NCBI GenBank assembly: GCA_038883335.1
Contig: JAVZMI010000011.1
Coordinates: 1-34,490 of the forward strand
DNA length: 34,490 nt
Source of the DNA: Candidatus Bathyarchaeia archaeon
GTDB taxonomy: Archaea; Thermoproteota; Bathyarchaeia; Hecatellales; Hecatellaceae
Direction of reading: 5' to 3'
Shown: positions 3,338-34,490 of the stretch, one piece after another
Position numbering within the stretch: position 1 is the stretch's first letter
Layout: every line of letters begins with the position of its first letter
The notes under the pieces: generated by a model
What the model was told of the DNA's origin: nothing
Seen by the model: only the letters and a program-made list of their open reading frames with translations
Database searches by the model: none
Program-made: the position numbers and the translations under genes

Positions 3338-4517
3338 GCCTCCACCCAAAAGCCTCATACTCCTTTCTGACCCGGCCATATGCATCCAAAGTTTTCTTGG
3401 CTATCTCCTCCCACCTATAACGTTCTCCTATAAGGCGCCAGCCATTCTCCCCAATCCATCTAGCATAGTTTGGGTCCTCTAGGAGCTGGGTGAGGGCCGA
3501 GGCTAGAGAAGCGGGGTCGTTGGGTGGAACTAAGATACCTGTCTCTCCATGTTTTATTATCTCCGAGAAACCTCCGATATTAGAGGCTACAACCGGTCTT
3601 CTGGCAGCCATGGCCTCCAATGCTACGATACCAAAAGGCTCGTATAGGCTTGGAAACACCGCCACATCCGACAAAGAGTAGAGTGCCCGTAGTTCTTGGT
3701 CGTCGATGAAACCTGTGAAGAATGCTTTAACTCCAACGCCAATCTCATGTGCCCTGCGAACTAATTGGGGCTTCATCGGTCCGTCGCCTACAAATATGAA
3801 CTTCACATCGCTTCTCCCCGCGAGCTTAGCAGCAGCCTCTAGGAGAATATGAACTCCCTTCTCATAGACCATCCTGCCAACATACAGGACTATTTTCTCC
3901 CAGGGAGCGGCATAGCGTGATCTAACTGCTTGGGCGTCAAGGGTACTCTTCCACTCAAAAGGGTTGATCCCGTTTGGGAGGACATCTACCTTCTCCGCTG
4001 GAAGTCCGAACATGGATAAGATCTCTCTTCGCATGAAGTGGCTGCATACAGCTACTCTCCAAGCCTCATATGTAAGTAACCACTCTAACTCATGGATGTG
4101 CCTCTGGAAGTTGTCAAGTAGTCCGCCGCGTCTCCCAAGCTCAGTGGAGTGGATGTGGGCATACAGAGGTACGCGATAGATGTGCTTAAGGCTGATGGCG
4201 GCTGGTGATACAAGCCAATCATGGGCATGTATAATATCGAACTTCTCCTTCATAACCTTGGATGCAGTTTCAATCATTGTAGCATTAAACTGGTAAACCC
4301 AGTCTAGGAAGCTGGGTGAAGCTAGTCTATAGGCGTCAACCCTGTAGACCTCAAGGTTTTCTTCTTTTTCATAGGGCGGTAAACCAGGGAAACCTAGTGT
4401 TATTATTACGACCCTTACGCCAAGTCGACTTAACTCTTTCGAGAGCCAATAAACATTCCTAGCCAACCCGCCCACAATTCTTGGTGGGTACTCCCAGGAG
4501 AGCATGAGTGAGTTCAA
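3327..4517 (-). CDS. GT-B fold glycosyltransferase (glycogen-synthase-like)
   Basis: A 396-residue two-domain glycosyltransferase. The N-terminal domain carries WEYPPRIVGGLARNVY and HAHDWLVSPA; the C-terminal domain carries VLYVGRMVYEKGV, VGDGPMKP and the donor motif PSLYEPFGIVALEAM, nearly identical to that of the gene at 2081-3337. It therefore looks like a complete enzyme using a nucleotide sugar. Its ATG overlaps the stop of the upstream gene (ATGA at 4514-4517), so it is probably translated by coupling with the N-domain-only protein before it. The two may act as partners. The exact product (glycogen, trehalose-type glycoside or cell-surface glycan) is not determinable here. Confidence 0.88.
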   Translation of the reverse strand: MNSLMLSWEYPPRIVGGLARNVYWLSKELSRLGVRVVIITLGFPGLPPYEKEENLEVYRVDAYRLASPSFLDWVYQFNATMIETASKVMKEKFDIIHAHDWLVSPAAISLKHIYRVPLYAHIHSTELGRRGGLLDNFQRHIHELEWLLTYEAWRVAVCSHFMRREILSMFGLPAEKVDVLPNGINPFEWKSTLDAQAVRSRYAAPWEKIVLYVGRMVYEKGVHILLEAAAKLAGRSDVKFIFVGDGPMKPQLVRRAHEIGVGVKAFFTGFIDDQELRALYSLSDVAVFPSLYEPFGIVALEAMAARRPVVASNIGGFSEIIKHGETGILVPPNDPASLASALTQLLEDPNYARWIGENGWRLIGERYRWEEIAKKTLDAYGRVRKEYEAFGWRPRT

Positions 4518-5161
4518 ACTTTAACCTTCTCATAGGCGTTTATAGCTGTATCCACGTCACTCGAGCCAAGGCGTGCCGGCAATATTTTCTCACACAGAAT
4601 TCCATAATCAACCTTTATTCTCGAAGCTACATCATCGTCCCCAGCTAAGATTATGTCGGCATATTTGAGGCAGAAGCGTTCTACCTCACTGATCCCATGC
4701 CCCAGAAGGTTTCCCATCCCCCCTCGAATAGACTCCGTAGAGTAGACTGTTAAGACTGTGGGGAGATTGAAGCTCCATTTCAGGTATAAGGCTGGAAGGC
4801 ATGAGGTCCAATCATGGGCGTGTATGACGTTAAGGCCCTCCCCATTCATACTGTGGAAAAAATCCGCAGACCTTCGTACTAACGTGACACTTAGAGACCA
4901 AATATAGTTGAGAATACTGGCGTGATGCTTGATAGGATGGCCAGCCATTAAAACTCTGACCGCACCATCCATCTTTTCTCCATCCCCATCTGAAGGGTGG
5001 ATTACGGTTACATCTAGCCCCCTCCCCGCGAGCCCTTGTGCGAGACTGTAAACATATCCAGCGACGCGGCCTACAATTCTTGGTGGGTACTCCCATGTCA
5101 GCAATAAAACCTTGAGAGGGCGGTCTTGCTTCCGTATTCTAGCTAAAGGAGGTGACGACAC
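4514..5161 (-). CDS. Standalone N-terminal domain of a GT-B glycosyltransferase
   Basis: A 215-residue protein homologous over its length to the N-terminal acceptor domain of its two neighbours: TWEYPPRIVGRVAGYVYS near residue 22 and VIHAHDWTSCLPALYLK in the middle. It stops at the interdomain linker, and the whole nucleotide-sugar binding domain is absent. The glycine loop that reads VGGL in the two full paralogues reads VGRV here, so activity on its own is unlikely. The gene overlaps the one upstream by 23 bases and the one downstream by 4, which argues for a stable operon arrangement rather than a fresh truncation. It could be a non-catalytic partner of the downstream enzyme; that is inference. 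Confidence 0.8.
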   Translation of the reverse strand: MSSPPLARIRKQDRPLKVLLLTWEYPPRIVGRVAGYVYSLAQGLAGRGLDVTVIHPSDGDGEKMDGAVRVLMAGHPIKHHASILNYIWSLSVTLVRRSADFFHSMNGEGLNVIHAHDWTSCLPALYLKWSFNLPTVLTVYSTESIRGGMGNLLGHGISEVERFCLKYADIILAGDDDVASRIKVDYGILCEKILPARLGSSDVDTAINAYEKVKV

Positions 5162-29981: not shown

Positions 29982-30980
29982 CTATCTGGCTGCTACCTCT
30001 GGTGGGAAGAGTGTGATGGTTGGTGGTTTGGGTTGTGCGTGTGGTCTGGCTGGTTGGCGTAATATTATTAGGCGTTTGGGGGTTCCGGGGATGCTGCCTT
30101 TTAGTAGTAGGTAGTGTCCTTTGAGTATGCCGTAGCGGTTGAATCCCTCTCTTGGGTTTGCCTCGGCGGGGGTTGTGCCGATTTTGAGAACTCTCTTATT
30201 CAGTTCGACTCTTCTAGCGTAGCCCATCTGGCCTGCTCTGGCTACTGTGTATGTTACGGAGGCTGGGTGCCATGGGCCTATGCACCCGACGCTTCGGACG
30301 TGTTTTCGTGATTTGTCTTGGAGGATTCGGACTCCGAACCGTTTGACTGGGCCTTGGAATCCTTTACCTTTTGTTACCGCAGCTACGTCTATGCATTGGC
30401 CTTCCTTCACGAATGAGGTTACATCTATCTCTTTGCCGAGTATGGTTTTTCCGTATTCTAGTTGGTCTTTCGGCGTATTTCCGCCTATGGCTACCTCGAA
30501 GACTTCGGGTTTCTTCTTGTGGAGTCCGGCTTTGTGCGGGTTTGTGGCTGCTATGGCTCGGATTGTGGCTGTTTGGTCGAGTTTGGCTTCGAGTGTCTTC
30601 AGGTCTTCTTCGGGGTTGGGGTTTGGGGGCGGTTTGAGGGTTCGGGTTAGGTGTTTAGGTAAGGTTTTTGCCCAGGCTTCGCCTAGGGTTTTTAGGCCGT
30701 TGGTTGTGGTCTCATAGGCTCGGAGGGCGATGATTGTGAGGGGTGGGGTTTCGACTATTGTGACTGGGGTGAAGATTTCGCGGCCGTAGTTTGGGGAGGT
30801 TGGGTTGTCTTCTAGGATGAATGCGTGGGACATGCCTGCCTTATAGCCTGCGAAGCCCAGTAGCTTGGGTTCAGCTGTTTGGGGCCAGTAGCGTGGCGTG
30901 GCTATTAGGCTTGCGGCGCGCCCCCTCGGCCTGAAGGCTAGTGAGCCCCTATGTGGGGCGTGTTTCTTCCTATGCCCCAT
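29982..30980 (-). CDS. Large ribosomal subunit protein uL3
   Basis: A 332-residue archaeal/eukaryotic-type uL3 at the peptidyl-transferase base. Features: MGHRKKHAPHRGSLAFRPRGRA start, GFAGYKAGMSHAF, VTKGKGFQGPVKRFGVR with the W/GPWHPASVTYTVARAGQMGYARRVELNKRV stretch typical of the family, and KGHYLLLKGSIPGTPKRL. It is the first gene of the minus-strand ribosomal cluster and has its own TATA box, 31025-31035. The coding strand is strikingly C/A-rich (complement G/T-rich), especially 29990-30960. Confidence 0.96.
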   Translation of the reverse strand: MGHRKKHAPHRGSLAFRPRGRAASLIATPRYWPQTAEPKLLGFAGYKAGMSHAFILEDNPTSPNYGREIFTPVTIVETPPLTIIALRAYETTTNGLKTLGEAWAKTLPKHLTRTLKPPPNPNPEEDLKTLEAKLDQTATIRAIAATNPHKAGLHKKKPEVFEVAIGGNTPKDQLEYGKTILGKEIDVTSFVKEGQCIDVAAVTKGKGFQGPVKRFGVRILQDKSRKHVRSVGCIGPWHPASVTYTVARAGQMGYARRVELNKRVLKIGTTPAEANPREGFNRYGILKGHYLLLKGSIPGTPKRLIILRQPARPHAQPKPPTITLFPPEVAAR

Positions 30981-31024
30981 AAACCCTCACATCTATGTAA
31001 CGTAACACAACAACATCTAAACAT

Positions 31025-31035
31025 CTTTATTTAAG
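31025..31035 (-). promoter_or_regulatory. TATA box of the uL3-uS19 ribosomal cluster
   Basis: The minus strand reads CTTAAATAAAG, a strong archaeal TATA match about 50 bases before the uL3 ATG at 30980. It predicts transcription start near 31005 and a short leader with a GAGGG ribosome site. It gives the cluster an independent promoter, which matters because the restriction-modification gene lies between uL3 and the SPOUT methyltransferase that normally precedes it. Confidence 0.6.
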
Positions 31036-31185
31036 CATTATTTCTACCTGAGGGAACTTTTTAGTTATTTCCAAACTGGAATCTGGCTTTTAGTGTCGAA
31101 ATTATTTTAGACGTGAAAAGTGCTATGTAAGAGGAGAAGGCTTTCTCTTGGTGGAGAACGGGGAAGGTTGAGTCGAGAGGCTAAA

Positions 31186-32745
31186 GTGGAGAGTGAGTTT
31201 TACCGTCTAATAAAGAATGTCCTCGATAAGCATGGTTATGTGATCGAGGGTGTAAGGCTTGAGAATGTTGAGACGCAATATCCAGTTAACTCCGGAAGGG
31301 CTGATTTGGCTGTTCTCTTAGACTCTAGACGACCTCTGGCGATCATTGAGTGCAAGAGGAAGTTAGAGGCTGCTAGGGCCTATGTGGAGCGTCGAGACTT
31401 TGACCCGTTAAGTAGTAAGGTGATAGATCAGGCTAAGCTTTATGCAGTAAATTCTGGCGCCCCGCTTTTCGCGACGACTAATGGGAAGGTGTTCGCATTA
31501 TTCACTATGCCTGAGAGAGGTGAACCTTTCAGGATAGATAGGCATCGTCTTCTCGTGAAGGACATCCAACTTAGGGAGGAAGCGGTCGAGGAGATCCTCA
31601 AAGTTATTGTGGAATGGCATGCAGGCATAGTTATCCCACGCACACCGGTTGACTGGACGTTTATAATTAGGCTTAGAAGTTTCGTTGAGTGGCTTGCACC
31701 CTACCTAAAACGAGTAATCAAAGAGAAGCTTACCAGAGATAAGGAGTTTATCTCCAAGTTTGAAGAGTTGAGAAAGGAAGCCGGCGAAACAACCCCTGAG
31801 GTGCTGGCCAGAGAGGCCGCTTATATTCTCATGAATAAGATAATTTTCTACAAGATTCTGGAGAGGCATTACGGGCTTATTAAGCTAAGTCCTATTTCAA
31901 CACCGAATGGTTCACAGTATGTCAAGACATTAAATAGCTTCTTTACTAGGGCTGTCGAGGAGACTAAAGATTTTGAGCCTATATTTTTCGCTGGATTTTA
32001 TGATCTTATACCGTTGCCGGATGACGAGTACGTGTTAGAGGAAGTCAATACTTTCATTGGAGATATGGATACTTACAGGCTTGAGGAGATTGAGTCAGAT
32101 GTCGTAGGTTTCATATATGAGACACTCATCCCTGAGGTGGAAAGACACCAACTTGGCCAATTTTACACTCCACCGCAAATAGCTGAACTGATAACAAGAT
32201 GGGCTATACGAAGCCCAGACGATAAGGTTTTAGATCCAGGATGTGGAAGCGGTACTTTTCTTATTAAGGCTTACAAAGTTTTGAGAGAGCTTAAGGGTAG
32301 AACGAAAAGGGGGAATTTGCATGAGGAGACCCTCAGGCAATTATATGCCTTCGACGTCAACCCGTTTCCAACCCATTTAACAGCTATGAACCTAGCCATG
32401 AGGGATATTAAATCGCCTACCAGTGAGATGAATGTTATCCGCACCGACTTTTTTCATCGTCACCCTAAGGAGTCGGTTCTGTGTCCATATGCAGTTAGGA
32501 CCCCTGCGGGTGAGGTTAGGCGTGAAATCTTTATTCCGCAAGTTGACGCGGTTGTGGCCAATCCGCCATATACAAGGTGGACAGAGATACCTGAGCCTAC
32601 TAAGAAAGCCATTACAAGTAAGATTGGGGATGCATTGCGGAGGTATCACTTGACTGCTAGAGTTTCTCAGGGCATTGAACCCGGAATCTATATACACTTC
32701 ATAATTCACGGAACCAACTTAAGCCTAATGGCAGACTTGGGATGA
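31186..32745 (+). CDS. Type IIG-like restriction-modification enzyme, 5' part (nuclease plus methylase core)
   Basis: A 519-residue N-terminal portion. It opens with a PD-(D/E)XK-type nuclease module: Asp40 in GRADLAVL, then AIIECKRK (Glu55, Lys57). A helical connector follows, then an N6-adenine methylase core with LGQFYTPPQIAE, SAM motif LDPGCGSGTFL (Asp350) and catalytic NPPY (from Asn459). The frame ends in a non-homologous tail (NLSLMADLG) because of a one-base shift near 32719-32721. Read one base back, the sequence continues KPNGRLG into the next frame. GTG 31186 is preferred, with GAGAGG five bases upstream; TTG 31168 and GTG 31120 are in frame. Predicted to cut and methylate DNA. Confidence 0.85.
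   Translation: MESEFYRLIKNVLDKHGYVIEGVRLENVETQYPVNSGRADLAVLLDSRRPLAIIECKRKLEAARAYVERRDFDPLSSKVIDQAKLYAVNSGAPLFATTNGKVFALFTMPERGEPFRIDRHRLLVKDIQLREEAVEEILKVIVEWHAGIVIPRTPVDWTFIIRLRSFVEWLAPYLKRVIKEKLTRDKEFISKFEELRKEAGETTPEVLAREAAYILMNKIIFYKILERHYGLIKLSPISTPNGSQYVKTLNSFFTRAVEETKDFEPIFFAGFYDLIPLPDDEYVLEEVNTFIGDMDTYRLEEIESDVVGFIYETLIPEVERHQLGQFYTPPQIAELITRWAIRSPDDKVLDPGCGSGTFLIKAYKVLRELKGRTKRGNLHEETLRQLYAFDVNPFPTHLTAMNLAMRDIKSPTSEMNVIRTDFFHRHPKESVLCPYAVRTPAGEVRREIFIPQVDAVVANPPYTRWTEIPEPTKKAITSKIGDALRRYHLTARVSQGIEPGIYIHFIIHGTNLSLMADLG
32719..32745 (+). other. Frameshift junction in the restriction-modification gene
   Basis: In the upstream frame the sequence gives GTN then LSLMADLG and a stop. In the downstream frame, from the AAG at 32721, it gives KPNGRLGMIISN, the expected methylase continuation. 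One base is missing in the codon between Asn (32716-32718) and Lys (32721-32723). No homopolymer or standard slippery heptamer is present at the site. The ATGA overlap right after it could allow restart. Confidence 0.75.
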
Positions 32746-34181
32746 TTATCTCTAACAGTTGGCTTCAAGCCGATTATGGGCGGGATTTCGCGAAGTTTCT
32801 ATTAGATAACTATAAAGTGAAAGCTGTGGTTGATTTCTCAAGTAGGCTTTTCAGCATTCCTCTAATCGGAACTCTCGTTCTATTTTTGGAGAAGGAGACA
32901 GATAGGAGTAGTAGAGAAGATAACGAGACCGTTCTGGTCTACGCAAATGAAGAGGCCAAGGTGGAGGAGTTACTGGAGATCATCGAGAGGCCAAGGAAGT
33001 ATGAGGGCAAAATGCTTGTCAGAGTGGTGAGGCAGGGAGAGATACCTAGAGATGAGAAATGGGTTAACCTAATATTTGACACCAGTGAACTATTAGAGCG
33101 TATAAGGAAGGCCCGTCACATTGTCAAGACGAACGAGATTTTTGAGGCTTATAGAGGCAATGTGAAATGGATGGTTTGGGCTATTGAGAACGGGCGTAGA
33201 CCTGATACGGGTGCTAATAGCTTCTTTTACCTAAACAAGGATGCTGTGGATCATTGGGGATTGAAGGAGTTCGTCCATCCTGTACTGGTCAGCCCCAGAT
33301 ACGCTAGGAACTTTACGTTTACTGAAAAGGACTGGGAGTCGTTAAAGGATGATGGAAAGCTTTGCTACGTTTTTCTTTGCCACAAGCCTAGGATAGATCT
33401 GCCGAAACCGGTCGTAGAGTATATTAGATGGGGCGAAACACAGTGCACACTTCGACCTTCAAAGAAGGCTGGCGAAAAGCCTAAACATTGCGATGAAGCC
33501 CTCTCATGTCAGGAGAGGGAAAGAAATCGGAAAGCGGGATTCTTTGGATGGTACGACCTAGGTAGAGTGATAAACGCGCCGATATTTACTCCCTACTATG
33601 CAAGGTATTTGCGCCGTTTTAATTTATCAGAGTTCAATACCGCTCTAGATGCCGATTTCATATCTTTAATCCAGAAAGTTGGGCTAGATAAAAAACAACT
33701 AAAAGCATTAGTCGCATATCTTAATTCAACTTTTGCTAGGTTTTACATCGAGACCTCTGGAAGAGCAGCTGGTGGGGCTGGTCCAATAGCATTAGATATC
33801 AAGCAAACAGAAGAGATGCCCTTGTTAGATGTGCGCAAGTTGTCTAAAAGACAAATTCAAGAGTTAGTCGAGCTTTTCGATGAATTGGAGAGCAAGTCTA
33901 GAAGCCTTGGTGGGGCTGATAAAAAGTCAAACCTCGAAAAGTTAAAGCTAACGATAAACAAGATTGACATCTATATCGCTGGCCTCTTGGGATTACCTAA
34001 AAAATTCGTCAGCAAGATGGTGACGATGACTGAGACCCTCATGGAGAGGAGGCTTAGCAGAGCCGAGGAAGCCAGACCTGAAGCTGTCAGGGGTGAAGAA
34101 GAACCTAGGATGAAGCCAACCCAAAATTTAAAGACGACCAGAGAACACCAAGAGAAACCCTCACTAGACAAATGGATTTAG
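32742..34181 (+). CDS. Type IIG-like restriction-modification enzyme, 3' part (methylase end plus target recognition)
   Basis: 479 residues continuing the methylase after the catalytic motif: MIISNSWLQADYGRDFAKFLL followed by VVDFSSRLF and a long C-terminal region with the TaqI-like target-recognition pattern (LVSPRYARNF, INAPIFTPYYARYL, ALVAYLNSTFARFYIET, GGAGPIALDIKQTEEMPL). It begins at an ATG overlapping the previous stop (ATGA, 32742-32745), and its frame is open further upstream to the frameshift point. A single intact protein of about 1,000 residues was probably ancestral. It could be expressed as a coupled second chain, be inactive, or the shift could be an assembly error. Confidence 0.82.
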   Translation: MIISNSWLQADYGRDFAKFLLDNYKVKAVVDFSSRLFSIPLIGTLVLFLEKETDRSSREDNETVLVYANEEAKVEELLEIIERPRKYEGKMLVRVVRQGEIPRDEKWVNLIFDTSELLERIRKARHIVKTNEIFEAYRGNVKWMVWAIENGRRPDTGANSFFYLNKDAVDHWGLKEFVHPVLVSPRYARNFTFTEKDWESLKDDGKLCYVFLCHKPRIDLPKPVVEYIRWGETQCTLRPSKKAGEKPKHCDEALSCQERERNRKAGFFGWYDLGRVINAPIFTPYYARYLRRFNLSEFNTALDADFISLIQKVGLDKKQLKALVAYLNSTFARFYIETSGRAAGGAGPIALDIKQTEEMPLLDVRKLSKRQIQELVELFDELESKSRSLGGADKKSNLEKLKLTINKIDIYIAGLLGLPKKFVSKMVTMTETLMERRLSRAEEARPEAVRGEEEPRMKPTQNLKTTREHQEKPSLDKWI

Positions 34182-34218
34182 ACTTCTCAGAACCTTAAAT
34201 GATCAAGAGGCCACTGTC

Positions 34219-34490
34219 TCAGTCTTTGCAGGTGAAGTTTAGGAGCGCCAGCCCAATCATCACAGCCTCCTCAGTCCTGACAGTCTCCACCCCCTGAAAA
34301 CCTACAAGATTCACCGTATACTGGAACAGATCCTCAACCCTCAACCCCTCCTGCCCCAAAATCTCCCCCAACCCCATCGAAGGCGAACCAAAAGCCACTA
34401 GCACACTCCTACTCCTACCCCAATCAGCCCTCAAACCCCCAGCAACCTCGCCCAAAAGCCTACCACAACGCGAAGTAGCCACCCTCAAAT
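34219..34490 (-). CDS. SPOUT-superfamily RNA methyltransferase (DUF171 / putative RNA N3-methyluridine type), C-terminal part
   Basis: The window ends inside this gene, of which the last about 90 codons are present. VATSRCGRLLGEVAGG, then VLVAFGSPSMGLGEIL (the SAM-binding trefoil-knot FGSP..GL motif), and VNLVGFQGVETVRTEEA are diagnostic of the archaeal/eukaryotic SPOUT family that commonly sits just upstream of the uL3 gene. Here it is on the same strand as uL3 but separated by the convergent restriction-modification gene. The coding strand is very G/T-rich, opposite to uL3. The apparent TTG start at 34488 is internal; the real start is outside the window. Confidence 0.88.
   Translation of the reverse strand, partial: LRVATSRCGRLLGEVAGGLRADWGRSRSVLVAFGSPSMGLGEILGQEGLRVEDLFQYTVNLVGFQGVETVRTEEAVMIGLALLNFTCKD

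What the first reader, a model, noticed from the sequence alone, without database searches (positions are those of the whole stretch)
31186..34181. Restriction-modification gene lodged in the uL3 neighbourhood
The SPOUT methyltransferase normally lies directly before uL3. Here a 3-kb type IIG-like gene in the opposite orientation sits between them, and uL3 has its own promoter. Accessory DNA inserted into a ribosomal locus is rare; I see no repeats or integrase at the edges (30981-31185 and 34182-34218).
Basis: partly seen in the sequence, partly recalled or inferred. Interest (0 to 1): 0.55.

Follow-up and report, generated by a model that had tools for sequence, protein, structure and literature searches.

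The report
Broken restriction enzyme gene beside uL3
An archaeon carries an acquired restriction-modification gene between an RNA methyltransferase gene and the first gene of its main ribosomal-protein operon, but the gene is cut in two by a small frame-breaking deletion and the spot is one where other genes come and go, so this looks like ordinary genome turnover.

Summary
The gene is there and oriented as described, but it is not one gene any more. Two ORFs, 31120-32745 and 32742-34181 (+ strand), are the halves of a single-chain type IIG restriction-modification enzyme. The conserved LKxxGxLGMII segment is coded in the second ORF's frame already before its ATG, so the frame was lost at about 32716-32721. 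Intact relatives have one ORF of about 950-1150 aa. The only other copy in this 1.22 Mb genome is also frame-broken.

The insertion reading is supported. In 14 of 56 surveyed relatives of the class (Bathyarchaeia) the SPOUT gene lies 30-44 bp before uL3; in 4 other DNA lies between; none of the 56 has this gene there. Its nearest relatives sit elsewhere in genomes of other families, and its G+C is 0.44-0.45 against 0.48-0.55 for neighbours. But it lies before the operon's first gene, not inside it, and 37 of 56 show no SPOUT upstream of uL3 at all, so 'rare' is not borne out. No integrase or credible duplication was found. Most likely: a horizontally acquired type IIG gene, recently inactivated; sequencing error and a split but working enzyme are rivals. 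A new, broken member of a known kind; low interest.

The parts
29982..30980 (-). uL3 gene, first gene of the ribosomal-protein block uL3-uL4-uL23-uL2-uS19 (30980 down to 27626)
   Evidence: Pfam PF00297 E 5.3e-78; ORFs of the rest; uL2 and uL4 full length against NCBIfam
30981..31119 (.). divergent intergenic region between uL3 and the restriction gene; TATA-like CTTAAATA on the - strand at 31028-31035
   Evidence: sequence; motif no more frequent than chance in the window
31120..32745 (+). first half of the type IIG gene (541 aa from the most upstream start; real start about 31162-31186): PD-(D/E)XK nuclease, helical region, first part of the N6-adenine methyltransferase with DPGCGSGTF and NPPY
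   Evidence: ORF; HSDR_N_2, N6_Mtase; invariant D62, E77, K79, DPGCGSG, NPPY
32716..32721 (+). place of the frame break; relative to 15 intact homologues about four bases are missing here
   Evidence: alignments; inference by hand from the spacing of conserved residues
32742..34181 (+). second half of the gene (479-aa ORF; open in the same frame from further upstream): rest of the methyltransferase fold, target-recognition region and C-terminal tail
   Evidence: Eco57I 1-37 at 25.1 bits, just under the 25.3 cut-off; 40-47% identity to the second halves of the closest intact homologues
34182..34218 (.). 37-bp gap between the convergent ends of the restriction gene and the SPOUT gene
34219..34488 (-). 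C-terminal 89 aa of the SPOUT methyltransferase (COG2106/PF02598), cut by the contig end; its N-terminal part ends contig C14 of the same genome
   Evidence: PF02598 positions 215-302 here and 2-165 at G000:C14:21408-21845; C14 locus read

Best explanation
A solitary single-chain type IIG restriction-modification gene was acquired horizontally and came to lie between the SPOUT methyltransferase gene and uL3, head to head with uL3 and tail to tail with SPOUT. When intact, such an enzyme would methylate an adenine in its recognition sequence through its gamma-class methyltransferase domain and cut unmethylated DNA a fixed distance away with its N-terminal PD-(D/E)XK domain. In this genome a small deletion of about four bases has broken the frame inside the methyltransferase fold, after the catalytic NPPY motif and before the strand that carries GMIISNSWL. 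The first ORF then yields nuclease plus half a methyltransferase without target recognition, the second a recognition half without catalysis; the gene is most likely inactive and recently so. Shown: the two frames, the family, the absence at this site in 56 relatives, the deviating composition, the kept catalytic residues. Inferred: horizontal origin, deletion as the cause, loss of activity.
For: Two ORFs in different frames. LKPNGRLGMIISNSWL, conserved in relatives, is read in the second frame from upstream of its ATG, while the first ORF runs on with an unrelated tail. The first half keeps 66 of the 67 columns upstream of the break that are invariant in 15 chosen homologues, the second 37 of 40, so decay is recent. 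Homologues are continuous: of 56 homologues with an ORF of 800 aa or more most are 950-1150 aa (that list is selected for length). The other copy in this genome (G000:C3) is also frame-broken, near its N-terminus, and those two are the only DNA methyltransferases of PF02384 there, the remaining match being an RlmKL-like RNA methyltransferase gene by sequence and recall. Ten of ten other window genes tested are full length against NCBIfam models, against general frame errors. Site: SPOUT adjacent to uL3 in 14 of 56, IIG there in 0 of 56. In the class search 20 other genomes of 256 hold relatives at E <= 1e-40; in the 16 whose uL3 place was listed, 13 have it on another contig and 3 on the same contig at 8.9 kb, about 278 kb and about 1.0 Mb. 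G+C 0.45/0.44, GC3 0.46/0.475 against 0.48-0.55 and 0.50-0.61 for 13 other window genes. Nearest relatives (50-57%) are in other families of the class and the tree groups it with those, away from the own-family copies. Fold of the intact relative L162: best Foldseek match is type IIG BpuSI, E 2e-22 over 1039 columns.
Against: No reads or second genome of this species were available, so a sequencing or assembly error at the break is not excluded; the neighbouring SPOUT gene is itself cut by a contig gap. Low G+C is common in restriction genes (recalled) and is not proof of transfer. The grouping with L163/L164 is weakly supported (82/62). No insertion machinery or target duplication shows how the gene arrived. 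Gene loss in relatives instead of gain here would also give 0 of 56, though it would need many losses.
Confidence: 0.66

Rival explanations
1. The frame break is an assembly or sequencing error; the organism has an intact, working type IIG enzyme at this place.
For: Catalytic and structural residues are kept on both sides of the break; the genome is a draft in 18 contigs and the next gene is cut by a contig end.
Against: About four bases are missing, not one base of a homopolymer run; the second copy on C3 is broken too, by a different amount (about two bases, by hand); ten of ten other tested window genes are full length.
Confidence: 0.22
2. The two ORFs are made as two subunits by stop-start coupling at the overlapping ATGA (32742-32745) and assemble into a working split enzyme, with the nuclease and methyltransferase-core half separate from the recognition half.
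For: The stop of the first and the ATG of the second overlap by four bases, a usual coupling signal (recalled); both halves keep their invariant residues; two fragments of type IIG genes in Haloferax volcanii were proposed to act as a split enzyme, and deletion of one changed adenine methylation (PMC4389544, passages).
Against: The second ORF, read from its ATG, lacks LKPNGRLG, which precedes it in its own frame and is conserved in relatives; the first ends in an unrelated tail; none of the other 23 places of the class search is shown split at this point: 21 have open frames of 860 aa or more, one of 656 aa is cut by a contig end and one of 396 aa was not examined.
Confidence: 0.07
3. The order SPOUT - restriction gene - uL3 is ancestral in the lineage and other genomes lost the gene.
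For: No second genome of the same genus is held, so the genus cannot be tested.
Against: 0 of 56 relatives have it there, 14 have SPOUT 30-44 bp from uL3; homologues lie at other places.
Confidence: 0.05

Closest known systems
Type IIG single-chain restriction-modification enzymes (BpuSI, Eco57I, DrdV)
   Same: Domain order nuclease - helices - gamma N6-adenine methyltransferase - recognition region in the intact relative; BpuSI is the best Foldseek match over nearly the whole length, DrdV aligns over residues 1-921 at Z 21.1, rmsd 12.2, 607 aligned; Pfam Eco57I and N6_Mtase.
   Different: Only 10-20% identical to solved structures; here cut in two by a frame break; recognition sequence unknown.
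MmeI / type IIL
   Same: Weak match to MmeI_Mtase PF20473 (E 5e-8).
   Different: N6_Mtase and, in the intact relative, Eco57I score better; no MmeI recognition-domain match.
Haloferax volcanii HVO_A0006 / HVO_A0237
   Same: Archaeal type IIG gene in fragments with PD-(D/E)XK residues at similar positions (D60, E75, K77 there; D62, E77, K79 here) (PMC4389544, passages).
   Different: There the pieces are separate and flanked by transposase and integrase genes; here they are adjacent, in two frames, without mobile genes.
SPOUT methyltransferase COG2106 next to ribosomal-protein genes
   Same: Its place in ribosomal-protein operons of diverse Archaea is in print (PMC2584109, passage).
   Different: Here separated from uL3 by about 3.2 kb.

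Membership tests
Type IIG restriction-modification enzyme | N-terminal PD-(D/E)XK nuclease fused to the methyltransferase | tested here: met
   HSDR_N_2 E 3.7e-6; D62, E77, K79 invariant in six aligned proteins
Type IIG restriction-modification enzyme | gamma-class N6-adenine methyltransferase motifs (motif I and NPPY) | tested here: met
   DPGCGSGTF and NPPY in the first ORF, N6_Mtase E 5e-23
Type IIG restriction-modification enzyme | nuclease, methyltransferase and recognition region in one polypeptide | tested here: not met
   two ORFs in different frames in the window; met in intact relatives. The window copy is therefore filed as a broken descendant of the family, not as a working member
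Type IIG restriction-modification enzyme | overall fold like BpuSI/DrdV | tested here: met
   shown for the intact relative L162 only, mean pLDDT 70.4, recognition region poorly modelled
Type IIG restriction-modification enzyme | SAM-dependent cleavage at a fixed distance and methylation of the same site | not testable with these tools
   needs biochemistry
Type IIL (MmeI-like) | MmeI-type recognition domain | tested here: inconclusive
   MmeI methyltransferase model weakly matched; no MmeI recognition-domain model among matches
Mobile element insertion | integrase, transposase, tRNA site or target duplication at the edges | tested here: not met
   no such ORF of 80 aa or more at the edges, no tRNA, no credible repeats

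The most novel reading that the evidence does not exclude
The frame break produces a two-subunit type IIG enzyme by stop-start coupling at ATGA, a natural route from a fused to a split restriction enzyme, with its promoter head to head with the ribosomal-protein operon so that expression of defence and ribosome genes is linked.
Probability: 0.05. Interest if true: 0.45.

Novelty: new member of a known kind. Interest (0 to 1): 0.17.

Why it matters
It shows that the space before uL3 in Bathyarchaeia is not fixed: 4 of 18 relatives that keep the SPOUT gene upstream have other DNA there, and 37 of 56 show no SPOUT in the stretch seen. It is also a clean case of a restriction gene that was gained and then broken, with both copies of its kind in one small genome inactive on paper. 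Neither is surprising for restriction-modification genes.

Tried and rejected
Rejected: ancestral order (0 of 56); phage or plasmid cargo (no relative in one viral-contig scan with the first half; plasmid matches only under 60% identity, best place 34% on a haloarchaeal plasmid); programmed frameshift (by eye no slippery run at the break; not tested further); insertion edge marked by the 10-bp direct repeat (right copy lies in conserved last codons); a link of restriction genes with uL3 (G192 has a copy of another subfamily 8.9 kb from uL3, 6.6 kb beyond uS19, with other genes between). The PDB sequence search with the first half gave only type I and other methyltransferases, with the second half nothing at E <= 0.001. 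No MmeI structure is among the 50 rows; that excludes nothing.

Rows dropped: the tree used 38 of 56 homologues plus the first half of the window gene; 18 were left out as duplicates of another locus, near-duplicates, short, distant or frame-broken, among them the own-genome C3 copy (L064) and the G031 copy (L069). One search used 15 of the 56. One search tested 10 window genes that I chose; the other window genes were judged only by ORF length. Not in print: the searches listed no paper that I recognised from title or abstract as describing this locus; only passages of PMC4389544, PMC1829167, PMC2584109 and PMC3874165 were read.

Full report
What is there. The window is the whole of contig C11 (34,490 bp) of a 1.22 Mb, 18-contig genome. 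Relatives of its family include Candidatus Hecatella orcuttiae JdFR-11 (G001, by its 731,052-bp contig), so the class is Bathyarchaeia (class name by the records' titles and recall). On the - strand runs uL3-uL4-uL23-uL2-uS19, from 30980 down to 27626 (uL23 and uS19 named from sequence and recall). At the right end lies the C-terminal 89 aa of a SPOUT methyltransferase, PF02598. Its N-terminal part ends contig C14 (PF02598 positions 2-165 there, 215-302 here), preceded by a divergent glucose-6-phosphate isomerase (GPI) gene. Between uL3 and SPOUT, on the + strand, are two ORFs.

The gene is broken. ORF 31120-32745 (541 aa) holds a PD-(D/E)XK nuclease region (HSDR_N_2) and the first half of an N6-adenine methyltransferase; ORF 32742-34181 (479 aa) holds the rest. 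Close relatives have both in one frame. In an alignment with 15 chosen homologues the second frame already codes LKPNGRLG ahead of its ATG, while the first ORF has switched to an unrelated tail. From the histidine codon at 32707 to the conserved lysine there are 14 bases where all 15 homologues have room for 18, so about four bases are missing at 32716-32721 (by hand). The first half keeps 66 of 67 invariant columns upstream of the break and the second 37 of 40. The frame loss is therefore recent, or an error in the assembly. The only other copy in the genome, on C3, is also split, near its N-terminus (181 aa and 858 aa). Ten of ten other window genes tested are full length. These points favour real inactivation, but no reads were available.

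What the intact gene is. The intact relative L162 (1013 aa) has N6_Mtase, Eco57I and HSDR_N matches (the HSDR_N match is below its cut-off). Its predicted model (mean pLDDT 70.4, weak from about residue 670 to 850) matches type IIG BpuSI best (E 2e-22), and type I M subunits, CamA, BREX PglX, DrdV and BsaXI for its methyltransferase part and more. The break in the window falls between a helix and the strand after it in the methyltransferase fold (L162 about residues 523-530).

Is it an insertion? I took up to 5.5 kb upstream of uL3 in 56 relatives and searched them for SPOUT and for both halves of the gene. SPOUT ends 30-44 bp before uL3 in 14. It is upstream with other DNA between in 4: G001 (a CBS-domain gene, 1.1 kb), G022 (a nitroreductase gene on the opposite strand, 0.8 kb), G059 (0.9 kb) and G031 (2.2 kb). 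In 37 there was no SPOUT in at least 1 kb seen, and 1 was too near a contig end. The restriction gene was found in none. The 14 serve as the empty site. In the class search, 20 other genomes of 256 have a relative at E <= 1e-40; of the 16 whose uL3 place was listed, none has the two next to each other. Composition differs from neighbours (G+C 0.45/0.44 against 0.48-0.55). Nearest relatives are 50-57% identical in families f6 and f10 of the class, and the tree separates the window gene from the own-family copies. A 96-bp remnant of the same subfamily, 69% identical with a stop, lies in G028, so this gene is gained and lost across the class.

The gene lies before the first gene of the ribosomal block, does not interrupt it, and the space there varies among relatives, so the setting is not remarkable. 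The promoter claim for uL3 rests on position alone. The absence of repeats and integrase holds, with one 10-bp direct repeat that does not mark an edge.

Verdict. An acquired type IIG gene, most likely inactive, at a variable boundary beside the main ribosomal-protein operon. Low interest.

Noticed in passing
L064 5946-8844 (own genome C3): A second type IIG-like gene of another subfamily, also frame-broken near its N-terminus; with the window copy these are the only DNA methyltransferases of PF02384 found in the genome.
   Followed up: partly
L160 about 2004-2099 (G028:C2:62004-62099): Short remnant, 69% identical to the start of the window gene, with an in-frame stop, in another family of the class.
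   Followed up: partly
L194 6022-9063: Hodarchaeaceae homologue in three ORFs, also apparently broken.
   Followed up: no
window 4514-5161: A 215-aa glycosyltransferase with only the N-terminal GT4 domain, beside two ORFs of 396 and 426 aa that look like full-length glycosyltransferases.
   Followed up: no
window 34488 and the end of L159: The SPOUT gene is cut by the ends of contigs C11 and C14, with roughly 50 positions of the family model unaccounted for between them.
   Followed up: partly
L245 4713-7571 (G192): One of three type IIG genes of another subfamily in G192 lies 6.6 kb beyond uS19 of a short ribosomal block.
   Followed up: partly
L157 (G005:C67:3938-4733): uL3 of G005 is in two overlapping ORFs of 190 and 81 aa, a frame break in an essential gene that suggests an assembly error in that genome.
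   Followed up: no
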